64,000 nucleotides of DNA from a virus: positions 45,387 through 109,386 of the IMG/VR virus record IMGVR_UViG_3300023257_000013; one strand, given 5' to 3'. The notes beneath the pieces were generated by a model. That model had not been told where the DNA came from, searched no databases, and saw nothing but the letters and a program-made list of their open reading frames with translations. The position numbers were made by a program, and so were the translations under genes. The stretch's first letter is position 1. The number at the start of each line of letters is the position of its first letter. Below, piece by piece: positions 10,801 to 48,923 of this stretch.

Positions 10801-13800
10801 TGAGCTTGGGGTGATGGCCGTGAGGCGACAGTCTGAACTTTCGACCTCCGCCGGGGTGAGCCAGGTGTTGAGCCTGCTGGATGTGACCCCTACGCCGGAG
10901 CAGATCTCAGCGGTCTGGTTGGGTGGGTAGTCACAGGAAGGCACAGTGGCCGAAGCAACAGTCACCCCTTCAATGGGGACGTTGTCATGCCCCTCAAAAG
11001 CCATCACCCGGATAGACCCCCGCTCGCTGACGGTACCAGCCGCCATCTGCCATTCACCCACGTAGGGTGGAACTCGCATCAAGAACGTGAAGGGAATCGG
11101 GGCACCTGTCCAACCGTTGGCCCTGGCGTTAACGTCGGACCAGTACCAAGTGGCTGCATCCCGCCCAAGCCGGACCTCGTCCACGGTGAGTTGGGTCTCA
11201 AGGTCCAAAGCGGGATTAAGAGGATGCACAAAACCCCGCTCTGATGCGTAACGCAGGTCGCAGGTCTCGTGGAAGGTGAGGCGGTCCTCATCCACCCAGG
11301 CTGTCAGGGATCCCCAGATCGGCGCTGCGGGTGCCCAGTGCAAGAACCCTCTGGCGTCGATGTCAAAGCTGTACTCGAACCCGTAGATCATCGTATACAG
11401 CGGCCCCGGTGTCAGCGTGTGAGGCAGGAACCATGTGTTCGGTGGGACAGCACCCCAGGGGATGATGCCGAGGCCAGGAATGATGATCTGGCGGTTGTCT
11501 GAAACGGGGAGCACCGGAACGACATTGTCCCCAAAGATGGGAGGACCACCCAGCGCCACACCGATAGGAGGTGCCAGGTTGAAGTCGTCCTGATAGGTCC
11601 ACACGAAGGCCATACCCTGCCAGAGAGTAATTCGGAGAGCCTCCACACCGCCCGTCAACGAGGGCAGTGGGTTCGGTCCAACCGGCCCCGCAACTACGTT
11701 CGGGTCTGGGCGGGCAATCATCCTGATGGTAATCGGGTTGCCCGCAAAGTAAACGTCGTTCAGGTTCCCCACCCCTCGGGTGATCCCATCGTTCAGGGCC
11801 ATGGGAACAGAGGTGAAGTCCAACACCGTGATCCCAGCCAGTGTGTCCTCAAAGACCGCAACACCCGCTGGCGGTACCCCCACCTGGGGATCCGGCGGAT
11901 AGATACCATCCACGAACACCATTGCATTGGTCAGATTGTATCTGACGGCATCTCCCGTCACGGGGCTGAGTCCGGCGGGCGGGGCTGCCGTGTGGGTGAC
12001 GAACCTCGGGGGTTCAACCGCCGTCCCACCGGGGATGGTCTCCGCTCGTCCTATGGACAGGATGCCGTGCGGCCCCAACGTGTACCCTGCTAACGTGGTG
12101 AAGTCAGAGTCTTCAAACAAGGCTGGTTCCTGAACCAAGATCAGGTCGTAGGGTCGGGCATTCCCGATCCCAGGAACGATGGGACCAGGCACCACGGGGA
12201 ACAGGTCCGCATCCACATCTAGGGACGCAGGAGTGTCCCCAACGACGTTCACCACGCCGTTCAGGCTCAGGATTTCGTCCGGGTACACCGCCTCGGTTGG
12301 CACCGTGTCGGACCTGGCTGAGATCGCCTCGGACACCACAACGGAGATGTCCTCGAAGCGATCGATCTCTGTGTTGCCCGTGCGGATGTATGGGACCGAG
12401 AAGTCCCCCGAGTCGTCCACCCAACCCCCAAGCAAAGCCGGAACTTTGAGTGGGTTCTGGTTCATGTAAAGGAACTCCAGAATACCCTCCACCGAGGAGG
12501 TGGGCTCAGGCACATTCTGTCCCGCCAACTCCTTCAACGGGATGTAGGCGTGGTCCTGAAGGGAGGGGAGGGACTTGTCGATGACTTGTCCGTCTGACTT
12601 GGTCCCCAAGTCATAGCCATCCCGATACAGTCCGGCCAGCACCGTACTGTCAGCGAACGTCTGGAAGGTGGGAGCCGTGGTCAGGTCTGGCACCTGAGGA
12701 GCCTGCATCGCCACCCCTGAGGGCGAAACCACCATCAGTGTGTCGCCCCGCTCCAAGGGGTACTCGTGGGCGGGTGTGTCCACCACAAGGACTTCCTCAG
12801 GGAGCGCCATCGGGGCGGCCAAGTAGTCCTGGAAGGTAATCACGCACCCGTATAGGACTTCTCTGACGAAGAGGCCCGTGGGTTCCGTGGCACCCCACAT
12901 CAGGACAGTTGTGGGACAGAAGGCACCGAGTTCTGTTCCGTCCGGCTTCCCCCAGCCCAACTGATCTCCTGCCTCGAAACCGGGCACGGCCAGTTCTGGG
13001 TCACCAGCAACGGCGTCGCCCAGATCCCCAGGAGGCACTGTGGAGAGGAATCGTGTGTCATCAGGGTAGCCCGTCTCAGGATCCACGGGCACGTCCCTTA
13101 AAAGGAGCGGCGTCACGATGATGCAGGCAACAGGGACCGGAGGAGAAGCACCCCCGTCGAAAAGACCACCAGGTAGCCCATCCGGAAAGTACCCCCAGAT
13201 GCGACCCCTCGCCCGTCTCTCGACCAGATCGATGGAATCTACACCCTGGATGTCCCCCAGCACGGGATTACTGATCTGGCCAATCTGCTCACCCGTGGTC
13301 TTCAGCCATTCCCCGTTGATGTCCCGTCCTGCCGTGTAGACGCCAGGGTTGAAGGCTCCCGGCTCCATCTGTGCCCCTGCGCCGGGGTACAGACGGAAGA
13401 ATGCCTTGGTCCGGGTGGGGAAGATGCGGGAGAACTGATGCTGATCGGACATGCGCCCGAAGACACCCTTGGCCTTGAAGTGGTAATAGGGATCCGCCCC
13501 CGTCCCTGTAATGTGCGTCTTTCCGAGCTTGAGGAGAACGACGTCGTCCACATCATTCTGAACCAATGCACCCTGGATGGTCTGCATTATATTCAGCGTG
13601 TTTGGACCCAGGAAAGAACCACTGATCTCAGCATCCTCCAACGTGACGGAGTCAGGAGCCACCACCCAATCGTCCAGGGTCAGGAATGCTGGAGCGCCCA
13701 GCACCCGTTCAGAATTTACTGCGTCCGCCCACACAAACCTTGACAGGAGACCACCTGAGATGGCGTCCTCGTACCCAGGCGTGGGGTAGTCCTTCCCGTA

Positions 13801-16800
13801 GCCCACCCAGAACCGGAACTTCCCATCCCGATCCCCGACGAAACCTCCCGAGATGGTCTCCTGGATCTGTTCGAAGGCCACGACAGTGTCATTGTAGAAG
13901 CCCAGGAACGTCCTGGCTGCCCGATCCAGGTCCGAGAGGTGTGCCTTCTCCCCCATCAACCCAAAACGCCCCTGCTGCCAGTTGTCGGTCCCTCCGGCGG
14001 AGATCTGAATGGAACCCCCAGCGGGAGACGTGGCGTTGATGTCCCGGATAGCCTCCTGGGCTGCCTCGCTGAGGAATTGGGTCAACTCCACGGCTCGGAA
14101 GTAGAATGAGTCCGGGCTGGAAAAGGTGAACGTCGCAGCGAGGGTTGCACCCAGTCTGTCATTCGCTTCGCTGGGTGTCGTGACGGACAAGAACGACGCC
14201 TGGAACCGAGGCTCCACCAGCACCTCATCCTTGAGATAGGGTTGGAGGGTCCGCAGCTTGGTGAAGGTCAGAAGGAGCCACTGGTTGGGCTGCAGACCAG
14301 CTTGCGGAGGCCACAGAAGCTGCACAGCCCCTGACGTGTAGTCCAGATGGTACTCCACGTCAGGCACCAGGGTCCGCCCCGGTGCCTCCTCACCGTTGCT
14401 CAGGGTCTCCCCGAACAGGACAAGTTCCACCGTCTCAGAGTCCAGAACCGGACCCACGCCCACGAACTCCATGAAGTTCGGAGGGTACACCGGACGGTAG
14501 GAGATTTTGACGATGGGGGCTGCCAGTATGTCGAAGGCCCGATGGAAGCTCCCCGTCACCGTGATCTTCGTGCGTGTCCCATCCTCCGTGATCTCGGAAC
14601 TACCGATGGTGTAGGGTGCGCCCCCGATCTCGATAACATGGCCCGGCACAGCGAACTCCGTAAGGTCACCTCTGAAGATGACAACCTTCTGGCCTCGCAC
14701 CACAGACTCAAAAGGAAACTGTGTCAGATCAATAGCTGACATAAACCCAGCGGCTGCCGTTGTGGGCACAGGAGTCGGCCCATCGGGGTCCACCACCGTC
14801 GTGAGGGGCTTGTCCGTAATGTAGTTCAGCAGATCGTTACCAGGAGCCCTGCTGCCCACCTCGTTTATGGTAGAGGGGAAGATGTTGACCTCGGTCACAT
14901 CCCCGCTGCCATCGGTTTCGAGCGGAAAGTACTTCAGGGAGCGGATGTAGAAGCAGTCCTCACCAATCCGAATCATCTGGCCCGGTTCGAACTCTGCTGT
15001 CCTATCCGTCCTGAGCCCAAACCGGCTCTGGTTCGCCTTGATGAAAAAGGGTGGACGATAGATGTTTTTCTGACTGGCCTCGTAAGAACGCTCCCCGCCC
15101 TGGGCTTCGTACACGGCAAAGGTCACGGTCACGGGGTCCGTGGCGTCCACTGTTTTACTCACGAACGTGACACGCCCGGCTCCGTTCCAATCCTCGGGGT
15201 AATCGACAACACAGTCGACCTGCCCGAAGTTCTGCATCATCGCACCGATCCACACGGAAGGTTCGATGTCTTGGAACACGGTGTCTTCAAGAGCATGGTT
15301 GAACTTGTAGATGTTGGGGGCAACCAACTGCGCCTGTTCTTTCCGCACGAAAACGGGAAGGAACTCGACCACTTGGTCACCGATCCGCCGCCCCTCAAGG
15401 TCCGCCCGCCAGTAAAGAACCTCCACCACCGCCCCCCTCGGGAGGGGCACGTTGGGGGAGAAGGCACCCAGCATTGGATTGATGGAAACATCCCTGTGCC
15501 CTTCGGTCTCCAACTGCTCCACAAAATAGAGCCTCTTCCCAGCGTGTACCGTCAGGTCAGCGGAGGACAAGTTGAACCAACCGTCTGAGGGGTCAAACTC
15601 CGCCTCTCCACTGACGAGCAGGGCTGCACCCAGGAACTCCTCCTGGTAGTAGACCTTGGCCCCCGTCAGTGAAGTCAACACAGTGGTGCCAAACTTGAGA
15701 CGCCCCTTCGGTGTCGTCACACCGCCAACAACAATGTCAGCGGTCAGGTACTCAATTCCTGACGGATCCGAACTGAAGGACGCAACCCCCACCAGATCAC
15801 CGGCCCCGTGGCTAAAAGTTGCCCTCCCCACCTGAACGGAGAACGCCTCCGTGGAGAAACGGGAACTGTTCACATCGGGGAGCGTCAGCAGGTTGTTGGC
15901 CATCGTCCCCATGGGGACTTTCCTGAGGGCCGTCAGTGTCGCCTCATTCGTAAGGTTGACTGCCTCCAAACCGAACCGGAGGCTGATAGGACGATCAAGT
16001 TCCACCGCTTCGCCCATGTCCACCTGAAGTCGGTTGGCCTCCTGCTCCGCTGGGGTTGCAGGCACAAGCCCGGCCAGATGCAGTATCCTGATGATGAAAG
16101 GCTCCTCAGGGAGAAGCTGGAAGTCCTTGTAGACCATGTCAGCGACAAGCGCCGGGTCATACACATCCGAGGTGTGTCCCGTGAAAAGCTCCCACGTCAT
16201 CCAAATCTGGGACTCCTCTGGGATCGCAGGTGCCAATCGCACTTGTGTAGACGAAAGGATCTCCTCCACAAGATAGGAGCCGGTGTTATCCCCGGAGGTG
16301 ATCTTCAGGCGGTAGCCAACCTTGGCCTGGGTGAAGTCAGCGGACTGATCCTCAAAGTGAGTGGGGTCGGTCAGGCGGGCACCCTTGGACCCATAGGTCA
16401 CCAAGGAACCAAACCGCTCGACCAGGATCACGTTCCCGGACACCCCGTCCTGGGGCAGAACGAAGTCCGTGTCAGGATCCTGAAAGATGTAAACACCACC
16501 ATCAGGGGCCACCAGCAGCCCTGCGGCAATTTCAGGGATCCCCAGCAGGGTCTCCGGCACCAGGCTGGGAACACCCAAGTTCAGGGTCGTGGTCGTTTTG
16601 TCCACGACACCCAAGGCGATGCTGTCCTCCACCCAGTCAAACTTCCGCTGCCCAAACCTGTGAATGATGTCCTCGTAGTGCAGGAGGGGCTTGTTGACCA
16701 CCTCGATCTCGTCCCCATTAAGGGCAAGGTACTGGAGGGTGAAGAAGACCCCGTCGTCATACCCAGCGATGTCCTGCAATGGCACATTGTCCAGGAACGT

Positions 16801-36662: not shown

Positions 36663-37511
36663 CTAGATATCCAGGTTCAGATCGTAGGCGGACGCAGTGT
36701 CACCGCCACCGATGTTGCCGCCCGCCTGGGCAATCGTGTAGCCCTCTGAGGACTCAGCGAAACGGATGGACCCAAGCTGACCGATGGTGGGGTCGTTACC
36801 CGTGGCCAGGAACTCACCGTACACGGAGGCGAAGTCGTGAACATCAGAGATGGTCACGTCGCCGGTCTCCATAATCATCCCGGAGTCCTTAGCGAAGGTA
36901 GCAGACCAGGACGTGAACCAGCACGCCTCGTAGATGGTGATGACAGCGGAATGGCCTCTCTGGCTGGGATCCAATCCGGGACTCACGGAACCATCGGATG
37001 TGACCTGAGGGAACTGGGTCCGCTTCACACCACCGTCGAACTGACCACTCTTCCCCTGTGTACCGACGTTGGGCGCACCCATATCGATGTCCGCCAGGGT
37101 TGAGAACACAAGCTGCTGCTCGATGTCGAACGGCCACTTGTGATGCGAGAGGCTACGGACGGGACCGTCCACGCCGCCAGCATACCCGGAAGCCTGCCAA
37201 AGATTACAGAGGTACAGAAGGGCTCGTTCGAAGGAACCCGTCATCGGTTCCGTGACGGACGGGACCAACTCTGCGATCTTGTCCCCGAACCCCACACCAC
37301 GAACCGGCTCAATCGTCCGGCTCTCCGTGGGGTTGAACGAACTGATCACACCCATCTGGTGCATCGCAGCGTTGTTCCCATAGTGCGGTGTCAGGATACG
37401 CACCTTCTGAGACACCGCCGTCCGGGTGTTGGGGCTGGTTCCGAAATCGTACAGGTACGACGACCCACCCACACCGTTAGAGGGGTTGTTGTCCATGTTG
37501 TTAGCAGCCAT
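36663..37511 (-). CDS. Tail tube protein
   Basis: A 282-aa protein, with a strong ribosome site (GGGAGGAGCGC before ATG 37511). It has the length and beta-rich composition of contractile-tail tube proteins. Supporting segments are GVISSFNPTESRTIEPVRGV, then FGDKIAELVPSVTEPMTGSF and ERALLYLCNLWQASGY; the PTESRTIEPVRG...GDKIAE pattern recurs in large-phage tube proteins. The C-terminus is Gly-rich. It precedes the chaperone and tape measure genes. In most myophages it directly follows the sheath gene; here the two are split by about 6.1 kb of cargo. A TATATT box (minus strand 37574-37569) about 60 bases upstream may be its own -10, in keeping with high-level expression, but no good -35 is seen. 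Confidence 0.8.
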   Translation of the reverse strand: MAANNMDNNPSNGVGGSSYLYDFGTSPNTRTAVSQKVRILTPHYGNNAAMHQMGVISSFNPTESRTIEPVRGVGFGDKIAELVPSVTEPMTGSFERALLYLCNLWQASGYAGGVDGPVRSLSHHKWPFDIEQQLVFSTLADIDMGAPNVGTQGKSGQFDGGVKRTQFPQVTSDGSVSPGLDPSQRGHSAVITIYEACWFTSWSATFAKDSGMIMETGDVTISDVHDFASVYGEFLATGNDPTIGQLGSIRFAESSEGYTIAQAGGNIGGGDTASAYDLNLDI

Positions 37512-37700
37512 GCGCTCCTCCCGTTACACACGAGGTCGTAAGACGGTATCCGTCCTCACTCAGAGTCTAATATAACCGGAAAAACGATGAGGGTCTGCGG
37601 CTGGCCTAAAGGAGGATCAGAGACTGTTTCGTGGTAGAGGCGGACACTCGGGCATGGGGCACCTCCATTAAATCACTTTACCGGAAAGGCCCCCTAAGAG

Positions 37701-40283
37701 TCACCTGGAAAGGAAGGCCATCTGGACGGAAGCGATAGTGGCCTGAGCCGCCGCACCGTCCAGGTTACCCTGCGGTACCCACTCCCCCGGCACCTGGGAA
37801 GATGCAGCCCTGAGCCTCTTGGCCAGAGGGGGCAGGAAGTCGTAAATCGACCCCACCGCCTCCAGGAAATCAGCCATCCGGGTGAGGTGCGCCTTATACA
37901 TGCTCGTCTGCGTCAGCACCGTAGTCTGGAGCAACTTGAGTGCCAGGAGCAAAGTCTTGGCCACCCTGATCTCGTGGGTTGCCCCAGGCAATCCACCATC
38001 GGACTGGATCTGGGCCAGCAGGGTCATATGCTGCACAATGGCACCCAGGGTACTGGATACAACAGGGGACTGGCCCAAGGTGTTCACCGAAGGGGTAGTC
38101 TCACCCGGATCCTGATCGAAGAGCAGTTCCACTCCCAAACCGTCCGAGCCGTAGTCCTTGTCCCCCGTAGTGGCGACTCCCACATCATCCGCCCAGGTGC
38201 CAGAACTATCCGCCCAGGTGCCAGAACTATCTGCCCAAGTGCCAGAAGATCCCTTCGTGGAGGCACCAATGGACGAACCCCTCACAGAGGAACGACGGAT
38301 ATTCATCCCGGTGGACCCGTAGGTGTCCGGGGACATCGCATGGAGGACACCGCCAAACGTAGGGGGCTCGTGAGATGCTGCGGAGGCAGCGAAACAATGG
38401 TTCACCATGATGTCGTTGGGGCTGGCACTCCGAAGTACGCTGCCCAACACCTTGTCGTAGGGGACACCCGTGGGTACCACCCGCTGCTCCGGGGTCACCC
38501 CGGCCTGATCCCCGACCCGTTTGACGATAGCACAAAGGGACATCACCCGACTGGCGATACCAAAATCGACCGAGATCTTCTTAAGGCTGGTCTCCATTGC
38601 CACCCGAGCCGGGCCACTCCCAGCCATATCGATGGCGGTTTCCAGATCCTCAACCTGCCGCCCAGCCCACAAAAGGCTCACAGCACCCTCTGAAAGCTCC
38701 CGCTGGGTGGGTACGTCCACCACCACACTCATCCCAACAAGGCCCATCCTGACGGGGTAGGAACCGTTCTTGGACCCACCGTTGTCCGTGATGAACACAG
38801 GCCGACCGTCCCACACGTCCCCGACCTCGTGCATCTGAGGCTTGGCCGAACCGTTCATCTCCACCAGCACCTTCACGTCGGAATGACGGGGGCACTTGAC
38901 GGCGTTGAACAGTTCCATAGCCCCTGCGAGCACGTTCTCCGAGGGGTTCAGCATCTTCTGGACGCCGCCGGTACGCCGGGCAAGCTGGGCCAGGAAGCGA
39001 TCCTGGGCAGCACCCCCGATCCCCAGCACATGGACACGGCTCCCGGAAGCAGCCATGGACTCCACGATGGGGCCGGTCTCCCACACCTCACCGTCCGTGA
39101 TCAGGAAAATGTCTCCATCACCATCCAGGATCGTCAGAGCCTCCGACAAGGCCGTAGCCAACTGCGTCCCACCCTGAGAGTGTGTCCCCTGCAACCAGCG
39201 GGCCGCACGAGCACGATTGTCATCGGTAGCCTGCGCCAAGCTCTTATGGAAGGTCTCCGTCATACTGTCGAACCGGAGCAGACCAAACTGATCCTCCGGA
39301 GCCAACCCGGAAAGACACGCCTTCACGGACACCAGGGCCTGCTCGATCCTCTTCCCCCGCATGGAGCCGGAGCGATCCACCATGAAAATCACCTTCCTGG
39401 GCACCTGGGTGGCCTGTGGGACGAGTTCGGAGGGGAGGGCGACCATCCACCGGGGATGACCTTTTTTGCCCTTAGATGGCTTCCCCTTCACTATGGACTG
39501 ATCGGCAAACACCACCGGGGCCACCTCACGGGTGGACACGTCGATGACCAGATCCCGATCCGGGGACGAGGAGAGGCCCGCCAGCCAAACGTCAGCGGAA
39601 CCATTGATGTTCTGCTGCATCGTCACGTTGTGAGAGGGGGAGGACACGGTACCGACCAAACCAGCGGCCTCCAGGTGAAGCCTGAAACTGATCTCGTGCA
39701 ACTCCTCGGCGTTGTCCTTCCACTCGGGCAGGACCAACTCATCGAAGATGTCCTGAGGCAATTCCATCTTGGAACCACCAGAAGTGGGCGTGATGCGGGC
39801 AATGCTGTGATAGCTGGGGGCCAGGGTAAAGGGGAACCGGAAGCGGTACCGCCCGTCCTGCAGTTCCACCCCACCGATCACATCAACAGCGACCGTGACC
39901 GTCTCATCGGGCTGGACCTGTCCCACCATGATGGTTACGACCCCGTCCAGGCTAGTCTCCGCCAGGGTGGACAGGTGACCGGCCTCCACGCCAGCCTCGT
40001 ACTCCTTCCGGGCGTCCTCCCTCGGGGTAAGCTGGGAGTCCACCTCGAAGTCCTTTCCCTTCACCTTGTACCGCCGGACGGCCCCACCACGGGGAAGCTG
40101 GAAGATGTACAGCGCCTCCATGGGCTGGTCCCCGGCGCACTTGAAGCTGTGGACGATGGTCATCAACCCACCCGCAGGAGTGACCTGACCTGTCATCTCC
40201 ATCTTCTCCATCGCCAGGGGCACTGGGACGTGCGTGTGCGGATTCACCAATACGTTTCCGAGTTCCTGTGCCATGCCTCTCAT
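37701..40283 (-). CDS. VIT-VWA domain protein (inter-alpha-trypsin-inhibitor-like architecture)
   Basis: About 860 aa from ATG 40283, whose GAGGAG site lies in the last codons of the regulator gene upstream. A VIT domain spans residues ~20-160 (YIFQLPRGGAVRRYKVKGKD, DARKEYEAG, MVGQVQPDETVTVAVDVIGG, YRFRFPFTLAPSY). A von Willebrand A domain follows at ~298-470 with an intact MIDAS: DRSGSM, a Thr in GGTQLATALS and the Asp of LITDGEVW. The part after ~640 is low-complexity with three exact SSGTWAD repeats, then a helical domain (VAKTLLLALKLLQTTVLTQT). There is no signal peptide. VIT-VWA proteins bind partners through a metal ion. A phage copy between sheath and tube genes is unusual, and host-interaction, anti-defence or virion decoration are all possible. 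Confidence 0.88.
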   Translation of the reverse strand: MRGMAQELGNVLVNPHTHVPVPLAMEKMEMTGQVTPAGGLMTIVHSFKCAGDQPMEALYIFQLPRGGAVRRYKVKGKDFEVDSQLTPREDARKEYEAGVEAGHLSTLAETSLDGVVTIMVGQVQPDETVTVAVDVIGGVELQDGRYRFRFPFTLAPSYHSIARITPTSGGSKMELPQDIFDELVLPEWKDNAEELHEISFRLHLEAAGLVGTVSSPSHNVTMQQNINGSADVWLAGLSSSPDRDLVIDVSTREVAPVVFADQSIVKGKPSKGKKGHPRWMVALPSELVPQATQVPRKVIFMVDRSGSMRGKRIEQALVSVKACLSGLAPEDQFGLLRFDSMTETFHKSLAQATDDNRARAARWLQGTHSQGGTQLATALSEALTILDGDGDIFLITDGEVWETGPIVESMAASGSRVHVLGIGGAAQDRFLAQLARRTGGVQKMLNPSENVLAGAMELFNAVKCPRHSDVKVLVEMNGSAKPQMHEVGDVWDGRPVFITDNGGSKNGSYPVRMGLVGMSVVVDVPTQRELSEGAVSLLWAGRQVEDLETAIDMAGSGPARVAMETSLKKISVDFGIASRVMSLCAIVKRVGDQAGVTPEQRVVPTGVPYDKVLGSVLRSASPNDIMVNHCFAASAASHEPPTFGGVLHAMSPDTYGSTGMNIRRSSVRGSSIGASTKGSSGTWADSSGTWADSSGTWADDVGVATTGDKDYGSDGLGVELLFDQDPGETTPSVNTLGQSPVVSSTLGAIVQHMTLLAQIQSDGGLPGATHEIRVAKTLLLALKLLQTTVLTQTSMYKAHLTRMADFLEAVGSIYDFLPPLAKRLRAASSQVPGEWVPQGNLDGAAAQATIASVQMAFLSR
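38188..38248. repeat. 21-bp tandem repeat, three copies
   Basis: Three near-identical 21-bp units start at 38191, 38212 and 38233 (core GCCCAGGTGCCAGAACT on the plus strand) and encode SSGTWAD three times in the VIT-VWA protein. The first two copies are nearly identical, the third has two or three changes, which points to recent slippage expansion of a linker. Confidence 0.85.
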
Positions 40284-40285
40284 CG

Positions 40286-41011
40286 TCAAATCTCCTCGTT
40301 TTCGTCTGCAATATCCGGGATCTTTTGAATGTCTCGCTCAAACTGAGCCAAACCAGAAAGGATGCGGTTTTTTCTCCAAGGGGAAAGTCTCTCTGGAATG
40401 CGTACAATCACATCATCGGAAACAGCATACACGATCTCCTTTTGAGCCGGAGTTTGGGGTAAAGATCTGGTTTCTGTGGGCAGTGACTTTTCCAACAAAG
40501 AGCGGATCTCAGTGAGACTCAGCCGCTGTGCCCTCTTCTCAGAGATAAAAAGAAGCATCACCCGATGTTTTTCGGTGTAGTAGGCCCCCGGTCCAGAACG
40601 ACAAGGACCAGGCAAAAGGTAAATGGAGATGTAGTACCTGATAGTTCGGGCGGAGACCCCCACCAATTCTGAGAGTTGGGGCAGAGACCATTTGTCATCC
40701 GTGTCCAAGGCTACTGCACAAGATGACCTTTGACCCTGAGGAACAAACTGCGGAACGTCCCCCCTCAGAGCGAACTCCTTGAGTTCCGGGACATTCCGAA
40801 ACCACTCCCCCCTGATATAAAGATGTTGAAACTGCCGGTGCAGAAACTCCTCCACATCATAGGGAGCCTTGACCGGGACATAACGCAAAAGAACCACATT
40901 AGACGGTGTGGACACCTGAATAGCAGATGCTCGGTCCCGAGGGTTTGTGGATGTCCCTATCTTAATGGCCTCATTTTTTGCGTCCTCTAAAAAATAGATG
41001 TAGTGCTGCAT
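40286..41011 (-). CDS. T5orf172/Mug113-like domain fused to a MerR-type HTH regulator
   Basis: A 241-aa protein. Residues 1-85 (YIYFLEDAKNEAIKIGTSTN, then EEFLHRQFQHLYIRGEWF) match the T5orf172/Mug113 branch of the GIY-YIG fold, with YIYFL and KIGTSTNP as the characteristic strands. Residues ~107-175 (LPQLSELVGVSARTIRYYIS, then YYTEKHRVMLLFISEKRAQR and LSLTEIRSLLE) form a MerR-type winged helix. The C-terminus has a conserved-looking EIVYAVSDDVIVRIPERLSP motif. The gene overlaps the leader of the VIT-VWA gene, so the two are co-translated. It probably controls the cassette through the TTGACAG repeats just upstream; that is inferred. Nuclease activity of the N-terminal domain is uncertain, as catalytic Arg and Glu are not obvious. 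Confidence 0.75.
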   Translation of the reverse strand: MQHYIYFLEDAKNEAIKIGTSTNPRDRASAIQVSTPSNVVLLRYVPVKAPYDVEEFLHRQFQHLYIRGEWFRNVPELKEFALRGDVPQFVPQGQRSSCAVALDTDDKWSLPQLSELVGVSARTIRYYISIYLLPGPCRSGPGAYYTEKHRVMLLFISEKRAQRLSLTEIRSLLEKSLPTETRSLPQTPAQKEIVYAVSDDVIVRIPERLSPWRKNRILSGLAQFERDIQKIPDIADENEEI

Positions 41012-41034
41012 TCCTACCCCCGTCCTTGCTCGCT

Positions 41035-41063
41035 AGAGTAGGCTGTCAACTTCCCGCTGTCAA
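41035..41063 (-). promoter_or_regulatory. Sigma70-like promoter for the MerR/VIT-VWA operon
   Basis: On the minus strand TTGACA (41063-41058), a 17-base spacer, and TACTCT (41040-41035), 24 bases before the ATG at 41011. A second TTGACA (41049-41044) lies in the spacer, as expected if a regulator binds over the promoter. Confidence 0.5.
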
Positions 41064-41103
41064 GTTTGTCAAAAAAGATTTTTCAGAGGTTTCATCTTGA
41101 CAG
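41043..41103. repeat. TTGACAG repeat cluster in the divergent control region
   Basis: Exact TTGACAG occurs at 41043-41049 and 41057-41063 (minus) and at 41097-41103 (plus), and a shorter TTGACA lies at 41067-41072 (minus). Four hexamer copies in about 60 bp between divergent genes are far more than chance. They double as -35 boxes and as possible operator half sites for the adjacent MerR-type protein. Confidence 0.6.
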
Positions 41104-41124
41104 GAGGCATAGCCCTGTTACCTT
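41097..41124 (+). promoter_or_regulatory. Possible promoter for hsp20
   Basis: TTGACA (41097-41102), a 16-base spacer and a weak TACCTT (41119-41124), 30 bases before the hsp20 ATG. The consensus -35 with a poor -10 suggests an activated or weak promoter. Confidence 0.4.
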
Positions 41125-41154
41125 CAGGGTTGTAGGCAGCAAAAGGAGGCCACA

Positions 41155-41571
41155 ATGAAGGACAGATGCGGATTCGATGGGGACAACATCTTCGGCCCCC
41201 GGTTCGATGAGATGTTCAGGAAACTGGACGATCTCTTCGGGAAGGACACCCCCGAGTGGAAAAGCACCGAGGTAGGAGTACATGGGATCGTCCACGATGA
41301 CACGGGGTCCACGTACCAGGCGCTCATCCCCGGAGCCACCCGTGAGGATGTGACCATCAAGGTCGAGAAGGGGTCGCTTCAGATCGACGTCACCTACAAG
41401 CTCCCTCTCATACAAGGCGGCAAGGAACACACCTTCTCCGCCAGTGTACTGCTCGATGAGAAGTACGACACGGCCAAGATCGACGCCAAGTGTGTGAACG
41501 GTGTCCTGACCGTGAGGATCCCCTTCAGGAAGACCGCCAAGGTCCAGCCCGTCGACATCAAGGTCGGCTAA
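41155..41571 (+). CDS. Small heat-shock protein, Hsp20/alpha-crystallin family
   Basis: A 138-aa protein with a strong ribosome site (AAGGAGG before ATG 41155). A short N-terminal helix (FDEMFRKLDDLFGKD) precedes an alpha-crystallin domain: TGSTYQALIPGATREDVTIK, then VEKGSLQIDVTY, with the diagnostic VNGVLTVRIPF near residue 120 and an I-x-I/V-like C-terminal anchor (VDIKV). The length fits bacterial Hsp20. Such holdases bind unfolded proteins without ATP. It is the only plus-strand gene in this part, divergent from the MerR/VIT-VWA operon, and its end overlaps the convergent endonuclease gene by 14 bases. Myophages sometimes carry Hsp20, probably to aid capsid or tail folding or to protect takeover proteins; here co-regulation with the VIT-VWA gene is plausible. 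Confidence 0.9.
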   Translation: MKDRCGFDGDNIFGPRFDEMFRKLDDLFGKDTPEWKSTEVGVHGIVHDDTGSTYQALIPGATREDVTIKVEKGSLQIDVTYKLPLIQGGKEHTFSASVLLDEKYDTAKIDAKCVNGVLTVRIPFRKTAKVQPVDIKVG

Positions 41572-43528
41572 TCTCAGTTTGATCCTGAGCGGGACAAATC
41601 AACCTCGTCCCTAACCAAAGACCCTGTGCCTTCGCTTCAAGAACACCGAGGGAAACTAACCGTCCCTGTAGATAGGACACGTCTCGGTAGGGCTCATCCT
41701 CAGTAACCTCCAGGTAATGGAATCCGGACGAAGCCTGGACCATCTCCCGCTTAATCCGGTCACGCTCCCGTAGTGCCTCATATTCAGGCAAATAGGACTC
41801 GTCAATCATAAAAGCGTTAGGGAACGTGTAATGCTGATGACCCTGGAATTCAACTATTAGGTGGGTAGCGTCAGGGAGAAGGAAATGACCATCGAAACGG
41901 AAACGACGTCCAGTCGGAGGGTTGGTATATCTCATGGAGGACCATTCCATCTCATAGGGCACGTCACCCAAAGCCTTACTAACAGCGTCCAAACAAAGAA
42001 TTTGTCGGATATGCCGATGAAAGGTAGGCAGGCCATGCCGGTCACACTCCCTCTTGATAACGGGGTAATGATGCCCCGTCACGGACATCGCTTTACCAAT
42101 GGAAACCTTCCCGTTCTTCAGTTTGAACTGTTCCAGTAATGCCTTATCCAACCGGATCGTCCGGTCATCAGCAGCGTTCCTGACGTACCGCCGAGTCTGA
42201 GCCAACCCCAGGTCCACGATATACTTTCGCACAGTGATCCAAGAGACCCCCGTAACTTCCGTCACCCGATGATGATCAACACAGCCATCAGCATCCATAA
42301 AGGGTTCGAAATCCTTCAGGGTTAAATTAGCAGCCAACCCATTATCCCAAGGACGGTTCTCTCCAGTATAGAATTTCAACTTCCGGGCAGTTTCCGCCAA
42401 ACGAGGATCCTCTGCTGCTGTCAATCCTTTACTCCAAGAAGGCCGTCCTAACATTTTTTTGGAACTCCGGGCGATGCTCGGATGGTCCTCCTTGGTTAGT
42501 CCCTTGTTCCAACGCCCGGCATTCTCGGACATCTTCTGTCGGGTTTCATCCGACAGTCGTCGCCCTCGTAATACAGACTTGTCCCGTATTGCTGATGACA
42601 AAGCTACCATTAAGGCTTTTGGGTGTTGCTGTCGGTACCCAGGATGAGCGTTCTGTATGTGGCTAGTTAGGTTCTCCGCTCTGTACCCACACTCTAAACA
42701 AGTCACGTAATCCTCAGGTTCGAACTTGTCAGCCCATCTGGTATCCTCGGCTTTCTGTTGGCAGGAGGGACAACGACTGTCATGCATCCAACCCAAAAAC
42801 TTGGAAACGTCATGGGGCGTACCACACCCCGGACAGGTGACGGACTTAACCTCGCCTGTACCATGTCCACCATCCCTAGTCCTAGCAGCGTCAGACATTG
42901 CCCGTTCAACCTTTAGGGAACGAATCTGAACATCTCGACCATACTGAGCACGGTACTGATCCGCCGTAATCCCATGTGCCGCTTTCAAATGTCGAGCCAA
43001 AGACTTCGAACGATGACCACAGACAAGGCAGACGACGTAGTCAACCCCCTGTGTGACACTAGCCCAACGGGCTTCCCTTTGGGCATCCTGATAACGAATG
43101 TGCGCCTCGTCCCCCGCCTTTCTACGACGTCCGAAATGTCCCGCCAGACCCCCTTCCCCAACTACCTGTAAGCCACACACAGGACAAGCACGATCACAAC
43201 GGCAATTTTCACAGACGAAAGTTGTTAACTCCATGTGTGCCGTCTGATTAGCTTTCAGAACGACAGGACTATGACACTTTGAACATGCCACTGTAACGTC
43301 CTTGTACACACGAGAGTTAGCCGTAGCCCGACATGTTTTGGCAGCCGCAGCAGCCTGGAGCTTTTTGCCACGTGCGACAAAGGCATCTTCCCCAAAAGCG
43401 GCCTTCCATTTAACTCGTAAAGTGTTGGGACTCATGCCCAAACGACGAGCAACAGCTTTGAAAGGCTCCGTCGTCGCAAAAGGGTCTAGGATTTCTTCCT
43501 GAGTTGCTTTAGATCTTGGTCCACCCAT
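41558..43528 (-). CDS. Homing endonuclease: zinc fingers, NUMOD3-like motifs, Vsr-like nuclease
   Basis: About 656 aa from ATG 43528, with AGGAGGT six bases upstream (a longer GTG start at 43549 is less likely). An HTH-like start (FKAVARRLGMSPNTLRVKWK) is followed by several Cys pairs and two Ros/MucR-like fingers (YVVCLVCGHRSKSLARHLKA and YVTCLECGYRAENLTSHIQN). Next come NUMOD3-like units (LSDETRQKMSENAGRWNKGL, and a repeat LGRPSWSKGL) and helix-turn-helix segments. The C-terminal domain with FRFDGHFLLP, HLIVEFQGHQHYTFP and RERDRIKREMVQ fits the Vsr-like (EDxHD) nuclease of phage homing enzymes. It lies between the sheath gene and hsp20 with its own promoter and overlaps the hsp20 end, typical of a late-arriving mobile gene. 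Confidence 0.85.
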   Translation of the reverse strand: MGGPRSKATQEEILDPFATTEPFKAVARRLGMSPNTLRVKWKAAFGEDAFVARGKKLQAAAAAKTCRATANSRVYKDVTVACSKCHSPVVLKANQTAHMELTTFVCENCRCDRACPVCGLQVVGEGGLAGHFGRRRKAGDEAHIRYQDAQREARWASVTQGVDYVVCLVCGHRSKSLARHLKAAHGITADQYRAQYGRDVQIRSLKVERAMSDAARTRDGGHGTGEVKSVTCPGCGTPHDVSKFLGWMHDSRCPSCQQKAEDTRWADKFEPEDYVTCLECGYRAENLTSHIQNAHPGYRQQHPKALMVALSSAIRDKSVLRGRRLSDETRQKMSENAGRWNKGLTKEDHPSIARSSKKMLGRPSWSKGLTAAEDPRLAETARKLKFYTGENRPWDNGLAANLTLKDFEPFMDADGCVDHHRVTEVTGVSWITVRKYIVDLGLAQTRRYVRNAADDRTIRLDKALLEQFKLKNGKVSIGKAMSVTGHHYPVIKRECDRHGLPTFHRHIRQILCLDAVSKALGDVPYEMEWSSMRYTNPPTGRRFRFDGHFLLPDATHLIVEFQGHQHYTFPNAFMIDESYLPEYEALRERDRIKREMVQASSGFHYLEVTEDEPYRDVSYLQGRLVSLGVLEAKAQGLWLGTRLICPAQDQTEISRP

Positions 43529-43547
43529 TGAGCCACCTCCTAAATCC

Positions 43548-43576
43548 ACGATACCGGGAAATCAGGAGGTCGTCAA
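43548..43576 (-). promoter_or_regulatory. Sigma70-like promoter for the homing endonuclease
   Basis: TTGACG (43576-43571), a 17-base spacer and TATCGT (43553-43548), 20 bases before the ATG. This gives the endonuclease its own promoter just after the sheath stop at 43614. Confidence 0.5.
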
Positions 43577-43613: not shown

Positions 43614-46600
43614 CTACAAACTTGACCTCAAATGAAAGGTGAGAATTAGGTATAATAGTGGGAATACTGGGGAATAGTACGCCTCTATCTCTGCGATTGT
43701 GGGATCGTCGGCTGAGATGTTGGCCTTGACTCCGGTGTAGGCACTGATGATCTGGGCGGCAACGAGCCGCTTGAGCATCATCGCCAACCGACCCTCGATC
43801 TGGCTCACGACACCGGGCAGGAACTTGATCCCAACGAAGTTCTCCAGGACGTTCCGGGCCTGCCGCTGCACCTCGTCTGCGATCATGATGATCGTCGGCA
43901 GCTTGGTCAGGATGTTGGACATGTCCGTGGTCAGACCGTGCCGCACCCGCAGGAACGGAGGCTTGTCTTCGAGGATCGTCACACCCTTCTGTGCCACCTG
44001 ATTGGCCTCGACCGGGTCGAGCAGGCGGGCAAGCTGGGTGAACCCGGTCAGCCGACGCCCCGTCCAGGGAGTCGCCACATCAAGGTTCGGGGACACAACC
44101 GAGCCTGCAAGAGCTGCGGCCAGGAAGGGTCCGTCCACCAGATACTCCCGCACATTGTTCAGGTTGTCCTGAACGGTGAGGGTTGCCATGTCCGGGTACA
44201 CCAGCCGCATACGGGTGCTACCCAGGGTCTGGGCCAGCGAGATTGCATCCGTGGGAAGCGTTCCCGAGACCGTACCGACGATGGCCGTCCGTTCGGACTT
44301 GTACCGGATGCTGCTCATCTTGTCACAGGAGCGACGGAGGATCTGGTACATGTCCGTCGAATCACCCCGCATCGGCGTGATGATATCGGGGGTCACGAAG
44401 CCGGGCAGCACACCTTCCATCTCCGCAATCGCTGCGGTGTAGGAGGCGACACTGGCCTGCTCACCAGTCCCTTCCTTCTGGACCTGCTTCACTCCGACCA
44501 GGACCGCACCATTCAACATCGCCAGGTAGGTGGCGAGGGACACCGGGTTGTCCGGGATGGGGGAGCCGTAGGCTGCCTCCACCGAGGACATCTTGGTGTA
44601 GAACTGAGTCGTGAAGTCCTGCTTCGTGTAGATGTAGCTGGCGTAGTACAGGTCACCGATGGAGGGCTCGTTGCCCGCACGCTCGTAGGTCTTCACCGTC
44701 GCCGTATCATCGACAGCCACGTTCACAGTGTTGGCCACCTTCATCTCCACACCGGGAATAACCCGGACCGGGATGTTGGCGTCACAGGTGAACGTCGTGG
44801 AACAGGCGACCCGGAAGATTGCCGTGGCACCCGTGGGATAGCTGATCCAGGGACCGACCTTATCCGTGCTCCAGTTCCTCGGGAGGATCGTGAAGGTCAG
44901 GCCGGTCACGTCATCGATGTAGGTCTGTCCGACCACACCGTCCTGGCCCGTACCGTTGTTGAGCACCGAGGTGGCAACGGAACCGGACCCAGCGCTGTTG
45001 CTGGAAATGACGAAGTAGCCATCCAGTGCCGGGTCACCCACCGCACCGTCGCCGTCCTCGGAGGTGAGGCCCGTGCCGTAGAACAGAGCGCTCTGCACGT
45101 TCGGGCTGGGATCCCTGACGGTCACGCTGGATGCGCTCCCCAAGGAAGCCGTCAGTGCCGGAGCGTCCTGGATGTACAGGAACTCAGCGTCGGTCTCGTC
45201 CAGGACCACCGTAGCGAATCCATAACGGACGAAGGTGTGGGTTCCACCACCGGGGACGGCGGTGGGATCCAAAGTCCAGTCGTTGAAAGTGGCAATCTGG
45301 TGACTCATCAGAGCAGATGCCAGTTTCTTGGTCTCCACCAGGGAGCGGAATGCTGCGGCACCGGAACCGAACCCGATGGAGCCGTTGGCGTTCCCAGACC
45401 CGATAACGATCTTGGCCTGCTCGTTCGTCAGGACACCCTTGAGGCGGGTGCCTGCACCTTCCTGGATAACCAGCCCGGCAGCGATGACTGCGGCTGCGTT
45501 GCCCCAGGGTGCGCCCGGAACGGCTGCCATCGCTGCAACGATCTGACCGAGAACCGAGGCGACAGCCGTGATCGGACCCAGCGCCGTGGACGTTCCCGTG
45601 GGGGTAGCGGTGAAGTTCACCTCTACCGGGGTACCGTCCAACTCAAAGAGGAAGTCGTCGTTCGCTCCCTGGGTGCCCGTACCGTCATAGAACAGAACCG
45701 CAGGCTCTGCCGTGACTGCATCCTGACCACCAATGATGCCCACGTTCCCGTACATCGTAGCGGGGTGAACAACAGCGGCGGACCCGGCGTATCCGGTGTC
45801 TCCCGTAGCCAGCCCAACGATGTCGTTTCCGACCTGGACCCCCAATTCGGTCTGGGACACCACGAAGTCGGCAGCCATGCTTCCGCCACCACCTGGCAGG
45901 AAGCGGTTGCGGAGGATGATCCGGTCATAGGGCTTGTACTCGCCGGTCACGGGGCACTCGTAGGCCCGAGCAATCGGACCCTGTACCAGGGCAGCCTGAC
46001 CACCGGCAGCGGCAGCCCCTGTGTCAAGACCCGCCAGGATTGCGAAGTCCTCAGCGGCGGTTGCTGCGTCGAGGAACTGCAAAGATCCGGCAGTGTCCAC
46101 GCCCGGAAGCTGCATGCTGAACTGCAACTGCCCATCGGCGTTCGCTGCACAGGTAATGATCAGTCCTGCGTGCGCTACCGAGGCGAGGGCTGTGACCTGA
46201 ACAGCGGTCTGTGAGGTGACCTCGGCGGCGAGAAGCGCTGCCGTGGCGAAGGGGCCATCACCCAGATCCACCGTGTTGCCAGCGGTAAACACCAGCGCAC
46301 CGGACACGTCGCCTGTGTAGACCATACGCATCTTATCATGCAGGCCAACCGCCAGTGTGACGGGACCGTCGAACTTGGTGGCTCCTGTATAGAGCGCCAC
46401 CGTGTTGGGGTTGTAGATGAAGTAGGGATCCGTGACAATCGGAGACGCTGCGGCCCATACGGGGGTCACCGTCGCCGTCTGGGTGACGCCGTCGTAGTCC
46501 GTCACGGTCACAGCCTGACCGGCGGTGCCTGCACCACCGTTGCCGACTACAATGACCCAGCCGTTGTAGTAGTCGTCCGAGGTCGCCGCTGCGGGGGGCG

Positions 46601-48923
46601 TAGCGGTAGCGCTCAACACGAGGGTACTTGCAATGGATCCACCCTGAGCCAGCCCGCCGTGCCCGCTGGCATGCTCATTAATACGGTCTGCAAAGTAGGT
46701 GGCATCCACGGCAGTCGCCGGGGGCAACACCACCGGGATGCTGACGTCGTCCACAATCAGTGTGAGGGTCTCATCCGCCGTGATCGTAACGCTCTCACCC
46801 TCCACGGAACCAACGCCGCCTTCGTATGCCAGTTCAGTTCCGACGAGGGAGGCGAAGAAGCCACCCGTGTGGGTGAGGACCGCCGAGGGGGATGCCAGAT
46901 CGAGGCCCGCCGTCGAGGTTGCCTCAATCCCATGTACCTGGACACGGAGGTGGTCGGACTGACCATCGATGAAGGCATAGGGTCCGGCACCGGAGAGGCC
47001 ATACTTGGCCGGGGATGCCTTCCGGGCTGCAAACTGGACCGTAACGATCTCGTCAACAGGCCCCGTGAAGAAGTCGCCACTCACGGACTCATAGTGGAAG
47101 TCCGGGTTCAACTCGGAACCGGAGGGGAATTCCACAGTGACTCCTACAAGAGCCGCACCCTTACTCCCTGCGGTGATTGAGGCACCGAAGATGGAAGCGC
47201 CCAGGGCGTTCTTCACGGCGTACTGACCAACACCCGAGGCACCCGCTGCCTCGTTGGCGATGGTGTAGGTGGCGTCGGTGAGAACGTTGTAGTACACGGT
47301 TGCCCACACCGAGGCACCCGGAGGAACGGCCTCCGCCAAGGTGAGGACGGAACCTTCAACCTTCAGCACTTCAACCTTGCCCCGTGCCATCGCATCCTGG
47401 ACGTCGTAGCCCCAGTAGGCCCACACGACATCAGGACGGTTGGTTGCCACGTCGATCCGATTGTTGCTGATGGTCTGGTAGAGGCTCTGACCGAGCGGTG
47501 TATCCCGCCCGTTTCCCAGCGTAGGACTCACGGGAAGCTGGAAGCTGAGGCGGGAGTCCGTGGACACACCACCAGCAGCGGACACCACCGGGGTGCATGC
47601 CCCGAGGAAGGTCCGGTTGTCCACCAGGGACAGACCGATCTGGGTGTCATCGAACGGCTCCGATCCGACCGTATTGATCCCCGCAATCACCGTGGCTGCC
47701 GTGCCCCACATGATGCGATCATCCTCAAGGATGAAGTCGGCACCCTGGGTGTAGTCGCTGACGCCTGGCACCGAACCGCACTGAGTCACCGATGTGACGG
47801 CGATGTGAGCCAGGTAATCGAACGTATCCTGCCAGGTGTTCCAGTAGTACTGGATGGACATCACCGCACCCGCTTTGGGTGCCCGAGACAGGGTCACTGC
47901 ACGGGAGGCACCGTCCACGGACGAGGGGATGACCTGGACACCATCCACCCGCACCACAACGTGGGAGGGGTCGGTCGTGGTCACACCACCGCCGGAACCG
48001 TCCACGATGGGACCTTGGAAGGTGTAGAAGGTGGAGACCCGGTTATCAGCCAGCCCAGCGATGAGGCCGAGCAGCCCGTTGGCACTCCCATCCGCTACAG
48101 ACACGCTATAGGTGGCCAGCAGGGACAGCGTAGAGTGTCCGTAGCTGTTCACGAAGGTGGTGGCCGTCAGCGTCCCCGCACGGGCCGCTGTGATCGCTGC
48201 TGCAATCTGAGCCATCGTGTAGGTGCTGCGTGCCGGAAGGGCAATGGAACGGGCCACACTGTCAACCACCAGGTTGACAACGTTGTTGGCCGCATCCACA
48301 ACCACACCACCCACCGTGATATCGCCGTGGATGTCCAGGACGGCACTGGTGGAGTTCGGGGCGTCCACGTCTGCGAGACCCGAGAGAGCCTTCACGGTCG
48401 CCAGACGGTTGGGCACCTGTTCCGACACGTCATCGGTCAGCAGGGTGTCCGTGCGATCGAAGTAGTAGGTACAGCGGACGACGTCTCCGGGCGAGGGAAC
48501 GGTTGCAAGCTGTACAAGTCCGGTGGACCCGGCCACGGAACGGACGGCGATGACCTCGTTATTGATGGTCACGGTCACGTCAGTGCGGCTTGTGGTCGTA
48601 GTGCCCGTACCGTCACCAGTGACGATGGGGTAGTTTACCACCTGGAGCTTGTCCAGGACTCCGTCCCAGGCACCCAGGGTGATCTGACCTGTGGCAGACT
48701 CAACCACGACAGCACGAAGAGACTCGTCCTCACCGACAACCCGCTGATCCACCGTGGAAGAGGAACCACGGACGATCTCCAGGTCTTGCTGGATGAGGTT
48801 CTCATTTCCCTCACCAATGATGATGGGAATCTTGAGGCTCTCCAGAGCCGATGCCAAAGGGTTTTCAAATAGTGTCGTCGTGAAAACGCCCGGAGGAGCA
48901 TAATTTTGACCAGGAAATGGCAT
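43614..48923 (-). CDS. Tail sheath protein, greatly enlarged (1769 aa)
   Basis: The ATG at 48923 follows GAGGTGG. The first ~35 residues (YAPPGVFTTTLFENPLASAL) and the last ~440 are those of contractile sheaths: SIGDLYYASYIYTKQDF, then PVSLATYLAMLNGAVLVG, VPYPD-type RLVYPDMATLT, LPTIIMIADEVQRQARNVLE and the closing AEIEAYYSPVFPLLYLILTF. T4 gp18 has 659 aa, so some 1000 residues are inserted. The insert is a string of beta-sandwich-like units with recurring DVTVTINNEV and HVVVRVDGVQVIP patterns, each ending in G-x-V-x-x-YY-type strands, and Ala/Gly/Thr-rich stretches. These probably project from the sheath surface, as domains II-IV do in T4. It surrounds the tube and contracts on infection. 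Confidence 0.88.
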   Translation of the reverse strand: MPFPGQNYAPPGVFTTTLFENPLASALESLKIPIIIGEGNENLIQQDLEIVRGSSSTVDQRVVGEDESLRAVVVESATGQITLGAWDGVLDKLQVVNYPIVTGDGTGTTTTSRTDVTVTINNEVIAVRSVAGSTGLVQLATVPSPGDVVRCTYYFDRTDTLLTDDVSEQVPNRLATVKALSGLADVDAPNSTSAVLDIHGDITVGGVVVDAANNVVNLVVDSVARSIALPARSTYTMAQIAAAITAARAGTLTATTFVNSYGHSTLSLLATYSVSVADGSANGLLGLIAGLADNRVSTFYTFQGPIVDGSGGGVTTTDPSHVVVRVDGVQVIPSSVDGASRAVTLSRAPKAGAVMSIQYYWNTWQDTFDYLAHIAVTSVTQCGSVPGVSDYTQGADFILEDDRIMWGTAATVIAGINTVGSEPFDDTQIGLSLVDNRTFLGACTPVVSAAGGVSTDSRLSFQLPVSPTLGNGRDTPLGQSLYQTISNNRIDVATNRPDVVWAYWGYDVQDAMARGKVEVLKVEGSVLTLAEAVPPGASVWATVYYNVLTDATYTIANEAAGASGVGQYAVKNALGASIFGASITAGSKGAALVGVTVEFPSGSELNPDFHYESVSGDFFTGPVDEIVTVQFAARKASPAKYGLSGAGPYAFIDGQSDHLRVQVHGIEATSTAGLDLASPSAVLTHTGGFFASLVGTELAYEGGVGSVEGESVTITADETLTLIVDDVSIPVVLPPATAVDATYFADRINEHASGHGGLAQGGSIASTLVLSATATPPAAATSDDYYNGWVIVVGNGGAGTAGQAVTVTDYDGVTQTATVTPVWAAASPIVTDPYFIYNPNTVALYTGATKFDGPVTLAVGLHDKMRMVYTGDVSGALVFTAGNTVDLGDGPFATAALLAAEVTSQTAVQVTALASVAHAGLIITCAANADGQLQFSMQLPGVDTAGSLQFLDAATAAEDFAILAGLDTGAAAAGGQAALVQGPIARAYECPVTGEYKPYDRIILRNRFLPGGGGSMAADFVVSQTELGVQVGNDIVGLATGDTGYAGSAAVVHPATMYGNVGIIGGQDAVTAEPAVLFYDGTGTQGANDDFLFELDGTPVEVNFTATPTGTSTALGPITAVASVLGQIVAAMAAVPGAPWGNAAAVIAAGLVIQEGAGTRLKGVLTNEQAKIVIGSGNANGSIGFGSGAAAFRSLVETKKLASALMSHQIATFNDWTLDPTAVPGGGTHTFVRYGFATVVLDETDAEFLYIQDAPALTASLGSASSVTVRDPSPNVQSALFYGTGLTSEDGDGAVGDPALDGYFVISSNSAGSGSVATSVLNNGTGQDGVVGQTYIDDVTGLTFTILPRNWSTDKVGPWISYPTGATAIFRVACSTTFTCDANIPVRVIPGVEMKVANTVNVAVDDTATVKTYERAGNEPSIGDLYYASYIYTKQDFTTQFYTKMSSVEAAYGSPIPDNPVSLATYLAMLNGAVLVGVKQVQKEGTGEQASVASYTAAIAEMEGVLPGFVTPDIITPMRGDSTDMYQILRRSCDKMSSIRYKSERTAIVGTVSGTLPTDAISLAQTLGSTRMRLVYPDMATLTVQDNLNNVREYLVDGPFLAAALAGSVVSPNLDVATPWTGRRLTGFTQLARLLDPVEANQVAQKGVTILEDKPPFLRVRHGLTTDMSNILTKLPTIIMIADEVQRQARNVLENFVGIKFLPGVVSQIEGRLAMMLKRLVAAQIISAYTGVKANISADDPTIAEIEAYYSPVFPLLYLILTFHLRSSL

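What the first reader, a model, noticed from the sequence alone, without database searches (positions are those of the whole stretch)
37701..41571. Coupled MerR-type regulator / VIT-VWA protein / divergent Hsp20 cassette inside a tail operon
Seen: a T5orf172-MerR fusion gene precedes a VIT-VWA gene whose ribosome site lies in the regulator's last codons, with hsp20 divergent across 143 bp. Known: VIT-VWA proteins use a MIDAS metal site to bind partners, and MerR-type proteins such as HspR can control chaperones. Inference: the three genes form one regulated unit, perhaps for host surface or defence interaction, with Hsp20 as holdase. A VIT-VWA protein with intact MIDAS is very unusual for a phage tail region.
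Basis: partly seen in the sequence, partly recalled or inferred. Interest (0 to 1): 0.85.

Follow-up and report, generated by a model that had tools for sequence, protein, structure and literature searches.

The report
Giant-phage cargo: self-controlled metal-site protein
A giant virus of bacteria carries, between two of its tail genes, a small self-contained two-gene unit (a DNA-binding switch plus a metal-site protein of the inter-alpha-trypsin type) that also occurs in bacteria with the same control sequence in front of it, so the virus family most likely shares a bacterial module nobody appears to have described; the heat-shock gene next to it is probably only a neighbour.

Summary
In detail: T5orf172-MerR regulator, translationally coupled VIT-VWA gene with intact MIDAS, hsp20 divergent across 143 bp, next to a tail tube gene. 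The three-gene interpretation does not.

The real unit is two genes. The MerR regulator and VIT-VWA gene lie side by side in all 19 related giant phages found, and in 32 of 33 assessable bacterial loci (mostly Acidobacteriota), plus cultured Massilia and Aquabacterium plasmids. An operator, CTTGACA-S-TGTC, overlapping the -35 box of a normally spaced sigma-70 promoter, is conserved before the regulator in bacteria and phages; in bacterial genomes the exact site occurs essentially only there. A hairpin follows VIT-VWA in most phages. The unit sits in a variable cargo slot (0-8 kb) between two tail-region genes, is lost cleanly in a close relative (L008 versus L009) and broken in two others, so it seems not needed to build the tail. 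Hsp20 accompanies it in only 2 of 19 phages.

Best reading: an autoregulated (probably autorepressed) cargo module making a cytosolic MIDAS scaffold that binds an unknown partner. No MoxR partner was found. Biological role untested. I found no description of this module in open-access literature.

The parts
40286..41011 (-). MerR regulator (241 aa) with N-terminal T5orf172/MUG113 (GIY-YIG-like) domain, about 41002-40784, MerR HTH about 40681-40490, and a short conserved C-terminal segment
   Evidence: Pfam; alignment with 13 other phage regulators; same HMM finds the gene before bacterial VIT-VWA genes. The T5orf172 part is present only in the window, L030 and L031.
37701..40283 (-). VIT-VWA protein, 860 aa: VIT about residues 26-133, VWA about 298-441 with intact MIDAS, disordered Ser/Gly-rich linker 619-741, C-terminal helical domain 740-860
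   Evidence: Pfam; invariant MIDAS; AlphaFold2 pLDDT 82.9, pTM 0.82; Foldseek best ITIH1 6fpy E 2.4e-29
41052..41067 (-). operator AAACTTGACAGCGGGA containing the -35 box TTGACA (41063-41058); further TTGACA repeats on either side
   Evidence: best site in the 64-kb window for the phage operator matrix, 17.8 bits, next 10.4
41035..41040 (-). putative -10 box TACTCT, 17 bp from the -35 box
   Evidence: read from sequence and spacer survey; weak match, not reported by the consensus scanner
37656..37693 (-). hairpin starting 8 nt after the VIT-VWA stop, candidate terminator before the tube gene
   Evidence: -17.1 kcal/mol, 2 of 60 shuffles as low; clearly stronger equivalents in most relatives
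36663..37511 (-). tail tube protein, right border of the cargo slot
   Evidence: conserved in 166 viral stretches; tube/Hcp fold
43614..48923 (-). 1769-aa tail-region protein (structural role inferred from position), left border of the cargo slot
   Evidence: tblastn in relatives, mostly 40-69% identity
41155..41571 (+). hsp20, neighbouring cargo gene; not part of the conserved unit
   Evidence: PF00011; near the module only here and in L010
41558..43549 (-). ROS/MUCR-HNH-type protein (homing-endonuclease-like), cargo in the same slot in many relatives

Best explanation
A self-contained two-gene cargo module shared with bacteria. Shown by sequence: (1) regulator and VIT-VWA always travel as a pair, usually with overlapping or touching reading frames; (2) one operator (CTTGACA-S-TGTC, palindromic TTGACA-S-TGTCAA in its fullest form) lies on the -35 box of a 16-17-bp-spaced sigma-70 promoter before the regulator; (3) in phages the pair sits in a variable cargo slot between tail-region genes, with a hairpin behind it in most. 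Inferred: the MerR dimer binds this operator and switches its own operon, more likely as a repressor, because the spacer has normal length and the operator covers the -35 box. Coupled translation then makes VIT-VWA, a cytosolic protein (no signal sequence or membrane segment evident) whose MIDAS metal ion and VIT domain bind a partner protein, the MIDAS probably through an acidic residue of the partner. In the phage this acts on the infected cell (host takeover, stress, or competition with other phages) rather than in the virion. Partner and trigger are unknown.
For: Pair in all 19 distinct phages and 32 of 33 assessable bacterial loci; 4-nt overlap the commonest junction. Operator: bacteria LLR 426 versus 65-81 in shuffles, 27 of 29 loci; phages 152 versus 46-56. 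Exact CTTGACASTGTCA found in 12 of 25 bacterial genomes, at one place per genome in most, nearly always at this promoter. Spacers 16-17 bp in 22 of 28 bacterial and 15 of 19 phage promoters. Cargo slot 47 bp to 8.5 kb with unrelated genes in both orientations. L008 versus L009: flanks 84-87% identical, 3.6 kb with operator, regulator, VIT-VWA and hairpin missing in L008. VWA broken or lost in L012/13 and L020/21. dN/dS 0.10-0.19, so the intact protein is under selection. Hairpins after VIT-VWA in 12 of 16 phages at 2 of 60 shuffles or fewer. Annotated MerR + 'VIT and VWA domain-containing protein' pair on a Massilia plasmid, HTH + VIT-VWA on an Aquabacterium plasmid.
Against: No experiment shows binding, repression, metal binding or any phenotype. 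The window's own operator is a variant (GACAGC rather than GACAGT), its -10 is weak and its hairpin is only marginal. TTGACA is itself a common -35 box, so part of the motif is generic. Regulators evolve faster than VIT-VWA and may have been exchanged between phages. Position next to the tube gene in all these phages could also reflect a late, virion-related role.
Confidence: 0.68

Rival explanations
1. VIT-VWA is a virion-assembly factor: a vWA co-chaperone for the long tail, comparable with the MoxR-vWA pair proposed for jumbo phages and reported as required for tail assembly in Acidianus two-tailed virus, with Hsp20 as a second chaperone.
For: Located beside or near the tube gene in all phage copies. 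Precedent for vWA proteins in viral tail assembly: PMC7824862.
Against: No MoxR-type AAA+ (PF07726) in the window record or nine relatives including a 435-kb VIT-VWA-bearing record, while controls ring. The same pair is a stand-alone bacterial operon. It is deleted or broken in close relatives whose tail genes persist. It brings its own promoter and hairpin.
Confidence: 0.14
2. One reading: regulator, VIT-VWA and Hsp20 form one regulon, with the MerR protein acting like HspR on the divergent hsp20.
For: Divergent layout with one shared 143-bp intergenic region; L010 also has hsp20 on the opposite strand in the same slot.
Against: Hsp20 near the module in 2 of 19 phages; in L010 two genes separate it from the regulator. 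No HAIR site. Neither operator matrix puts a site facing hsp20 among its best 12 in the window. No conserved third gene in bacterial loci.
Confidence: 0.07
3. The module is a conflict system: a bacterial defence or anti-phage switch that giant phages carry for superinfection exclusion or to counter host defence.
For: Patchy presence in bacteria (3 of 60 sampled genomes of one phylum at E <= 1e-60, one of them the starting genome) and on plasmids; cargo slot with DNA methylases and PLD-like proteins; frequent gain or loss (9 changes on the tube tree); weak mad1 (MADS) match of the HTH.
Against: No defence genes recur beside the bacterial operon; VIT-VWA matches no PADLOC model; the mad1 match covers only the generic MerR helix-turn-helix.
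Confidence: 0.25

Closest known systems
Cytosolic VIT-vWA proteins (human VWA5A/BCSC-1, PARP4; Dictyostelium Vwa1, PMC10539598) and ITIH heavy chains (PDB 6fpy)
   Same: VIT then vWA with MIDAS in one polypeptide; best fold match ITIH1
   Different: Phage and bacterial copies are encoded with a MerR regulator, are about 720-890 aa, and end in a helical domain behind a disordered linker (modelled for the window protein only)
MoxR-vWA chaperone pairs, including those proposed in jumbo phages (PMC7824862)
   Same: vWA protein encoded by a giant phage
   Different: No MoxR AAA+ found; VIT domain present; own regulator and promoter
ArnA-ArnB archaellum regulators (PMC6509490; PDB 8s05)
   Same: vWA plus beta-sandwich plus C-terminal helical domain, acting in gene regulation; found by Foldseek
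   Different: Partner of ArnB is an FHA protein, not a MerR regulator; sequence similarity very low
HspR-type MerR repressors
   Same: MerR-fold repressor with a CTTGA-containing palindromic site at its own promoter (HspR site from general knowledge)
   Different: Site is CTTGACA-S-TGTCAAG, not CTTGAGT-N7-ACTCAAG; controls VIT-VWA, not dnaK/clpB
Phage morons (cargo genes with own promoter and terminator among late genes)
   Same: Own promoter/operator, hairpin behind, between tail-region genes, present in some relatives only
   Different: Carries a dedicated regulator and has a conserved bacterial counterpart with the same operator
VIT-vWA proteins of amoebal giant viruses (Fadolivirus, Terrestrivirus, Tupanvirus)
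   Same: Full-length structural matches
   Different: Eukaryotic viruses; about 15-18% identity; gene context not examined

Membership tests
VIT-vWA family | VIT domain followed by vWA domain | tested here: met
   Pfam over cut-off for both; fold match to ITIH1 across about 650 columns
VIT-vWA family | MIDAS DxSxS...T...D | tested here: met
   invariant in 44 aligned sequences; metal binding not tested
MerR family | MerR winged HTH | tested here: met
   MerR_1 44.1 bits, although preceded by a T5orf172 domain in the window
MerR activators of 19-20-bp promoters | over-long -35/-10 spacer | tested here: not met
   16-17 bp in most promoters
HspR | HAIR operator | tested here: not met
   only one 3-mismatch hit, far away at 2799, chance level
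MoxR-vWA pair | adjacent MoxR AAA+ ATPase | tested here: not met
   no PF07726 in 10 virus records; incomplete records limit this
MADS defence (mad1) | full set of MADS genes | tested here: inconclusive
   only the HTH of the regulator matches mad1; no recurring partner genes among neighbours, but the other MADS genes were not searched one by one
Phage moron | own promoter, own terminator, variable presence among relatives | tested here: met
   operator/promoter; hairpins; natural deletion. Sequence evidence only; transcription itself not tested
Virion protein | present in particles | not testable with these tools
   needs virion proteomics

The most novel reading that the evidence does not exclude
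The MerR/VIT-VWA operon with its CTTGACA-S-TGTC operator is an undescribed, widespread bacterial sensory or conflict switch built round a VWA5A-like MIDAS protein, and giant phages carry it as a ready-made weapon or shield (superinfection exclusion, counter-defence or host reprogramming).
Probability: 0.3. Interest if true: 0.82.

Novelty: new variant of a known kind. Interest (0 to 1): 0.6.

Why it matters
It defines a small, testable module: one regulator, one predicted operator, one effector. It spans several bacterial phyla and a lineage of giant phages, and gives a handle on what prokaryotic VIT-vWA proteins (relatives of VWA5A and ITIH) do. The natural deletion pair (L008/L009) and cultured carriers (Massilia sp. 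H6, Aquabacterium olei) make experiments possible.

Tried and rejected
Close-relative scans with the VIT-VWA protein and with the regulator found only the same virus in other samples; the tube gene opened the family. Hsp20 as a third conserved member: rejected. HAIR operator: rejected. MoxR partner: not found. MADS/defence homology: only the HTH. An operator-controlled hsp20 promoter: the CTTGACAG on the + strand upstream of hsp20 is not among the matrix's best sites. Generic promoter/terminator scans were at chance level. L111 was first taken for a misbinned phage contig; its neighbours (MacB/HlyD-type exporter, MarR, DNA methylase) and lack of the tube gene (a search without a positive control) make it look chromosomal. 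PHROGs gave no name to most tail-region proteins. Literature searches found no description of a MerR/VIT-vWA operon; this covers open-access papers only.

Full report
WHAT IS THERE. The window is bases 45387-109386 of a 109-kb virus record. The regulator (40286-41011, - strand) has a MUG113/T5orf172 domain followed by a MerR domain; the next gene is VIT-VWA; hsp20 is divergent. VIT-VWA should start at ATG 40283, 2 nt after the regulator's stop, with GAGGAG in the regulator's last codons. Its MIDAS residues are complete. The downstream gene 36663-37511 folds like contractile-tail tubes and Hcp, though its model is of moderate confidence. A Baseplate_J protein lies elsewhere in the record. So the setting is the tail region of a giant contractile-tailed phage.

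RELATIVES. VIT-VWA has no match in 50,697 annotated phage genomes. A scan with the tube gene gave 80 loci of a large, mostly uncultured phage lineage, with records up to 618 kb. An isolated member at 38% tube identity is Tunturi 5, a 309-kb myovirus of the Acidobacteriota Tunturiibacter (PMC11924767). Nineteen distinct records, including the window, carry the regulator plus VIT-VWA. The tube gene follows directly or after one or two small genes wherever the contig reaches that far.

BACTERIAL COUNTERPART. A scan of GTDB genomes with the VIT-VWA alignment returned 35 loci. A profile built only from the phage regulators finds the same MerR gene immediately upstream in all but two of them. One exception, L122, is cut off by the contig end; the other, L137, has two VIT-VWA genes in tandem and no regulator. 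Setting aside L111 (below), that is 32 of 33 assessable loci. No other gene recurs around the bacterial pair. Two cultured Betaproteobacteria carry the pair on plasmids. On the tree the phage sequences and one chromosomal-looking copy (L111, Myxococcota or Deltaproteobacteria) form one side of a fully supported branch, the other bacteria the other side. L111 lies among the phage sequences, so at least one exchange between phage and bacterium has probably happened, in a direction I cannot tell. In bacteria the regulator and VIT-VWA distances agree closely (Mantel r = 0.87); in phages less so (r = 0.42), so regulators may have been swapped. The T5orf172 domain occurs only in the window, L030 and L031.

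CONTROL SEQUENCE. The upstream regions share a motif that is far stronger than in shuffled sequence, in bacteria (ACAGTACTTGACASTGTCA; log-likelihood ratio 426 versus at most 81; 27 of 29 loci) and independently in phages (AACTTGACAGTGGC; 152 versus at most 56). Its centre is the -35 box. The spacer to the -10 box is 16-17 bp in most cases, which fits repression by occlusion better than the spacer-distorting activation of classical MerR proteins. In the window the site is at 41052-41067, clearly the best in 64 kb. In 25 bacterial genomes the exact core CTTGACASTGTCA turns up in 12, at one place per genome in most (two of the doubles are the palindrome read on both strands), nearly always at this promoter. 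This points to a dedicated local regulator rather than a regulon.

CARGO SLOT. Between the 1769-aa gene and the tube gene the distance ranges from 47 bp to 8.5 kb, filled with unrelated genes in both orientations: HNH/ROS-MUCR proteins, DNA methylase, RNA ligase, histidine kinase, HD, PLD, metallophosphoesterase and winged-helix-like proteins. Presence and absence of VIT-VWA are intermixed on the tube tree (9 changes). The clearest case is L008 versus L009: on either side the DNA is 84-87% identical, but L008 lacks 3.6 kb holding operator, regulator, VIT-VWA, hairpin and most of a PLD-like gene (identified by eye) whose end remains; L008 is therefore probably the deletion. In L012/13 and L020/21 the VWA part is broken or missing. 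Intact copies are under purifying selection (dN/dS 0.10-0.19). Hairpins after the VIT-VWA stop are significant in most phages, marginal in the window.

HSP20. Among 50 related records only three have any Hsp20 match, and only L010 has it near the module. With the window that is 2 of 19 module-bearing phages. It is best seen as another cargo gene in the slot; Hsp20 is known from other jumbo phages (PMC7824862).

STRUCTURE. The VIT-VWA model is confident (pLDDT 82.9) except for a 120-residue linker. Best solved match is ITIH1; archaeal ArnB, a vWA protein acting in gene regulation, is also matched. Full-length viral matches are from amoebal giant viruses. The N-terminus shows no signal peptide by eye, so the protein is most likely cytosolic.

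MECHANISM AND LIMITS. Shown by sequence: the pair, the operator, the slot, the losses, the selection. Inferred: repression, MIDAS-dependent partner binding, action on the infected cell. Not known: trigger, partner, benefit. The assembly-factor model loses support because there is no MoxR partner, the pair stands alone in bacteria, and close relatives manage without it. I found no paper describing this operon, but most subscription papers were not searchable.

Noticed in passing
window 41558-43549 and relatives L008, L029, L035, L053-L059: ROS/MUCR plus HNH/homing-endonuclease-like protein recurring at the left edge of the cargo slot; it may drive cargo turnover. Its 3' end overlaps hsp20 by 14 bp.
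   Followed up: partly
L005:1245-2633 (same virus record, outside the window): TnpB-like transposase with Cas12f1-like TNB domain, in a record that also holds a second ROS/MUCR-HNH-type gene (L005:10006-11070)
   Followed up: no
L009:4705-5874, L012:5522-6766, L021:7111-8139; L025:5021-6793, L030, L031, L105: Two families of winged-helix-like proteins (by eye; no Pfam match for the member shown), often transcribed divergently from the MerR gene; a possible second regulator of the slot
   Followed up: partly
L111 (JAKPOP010000018.1): Chromosomal-looking Deltaproteobacteria/Myxococcota copy of the pair, 50% identical to the window's VIT-VWA and nested among the phage copies: gene exchange between phage and bacterium
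   Followed up: partly
window 40286-41011, L030, L031: T5orf172 domain fused to the MerR regulator in two separate branches of the VIT-VWA tree, absent in nearer relatives; suggests domain gain or regulator swapping
   Followed up: no
window 7813-19227: 3804-aa ORF with no Pfam match in the tail region, among several other very large unmatched ORFs
   Followed up: no
L137:4947-10192: Two VIT-VWA genes in tandem without the MerR gene in a Thermoanaerobaculum MAG
   Followed up: no
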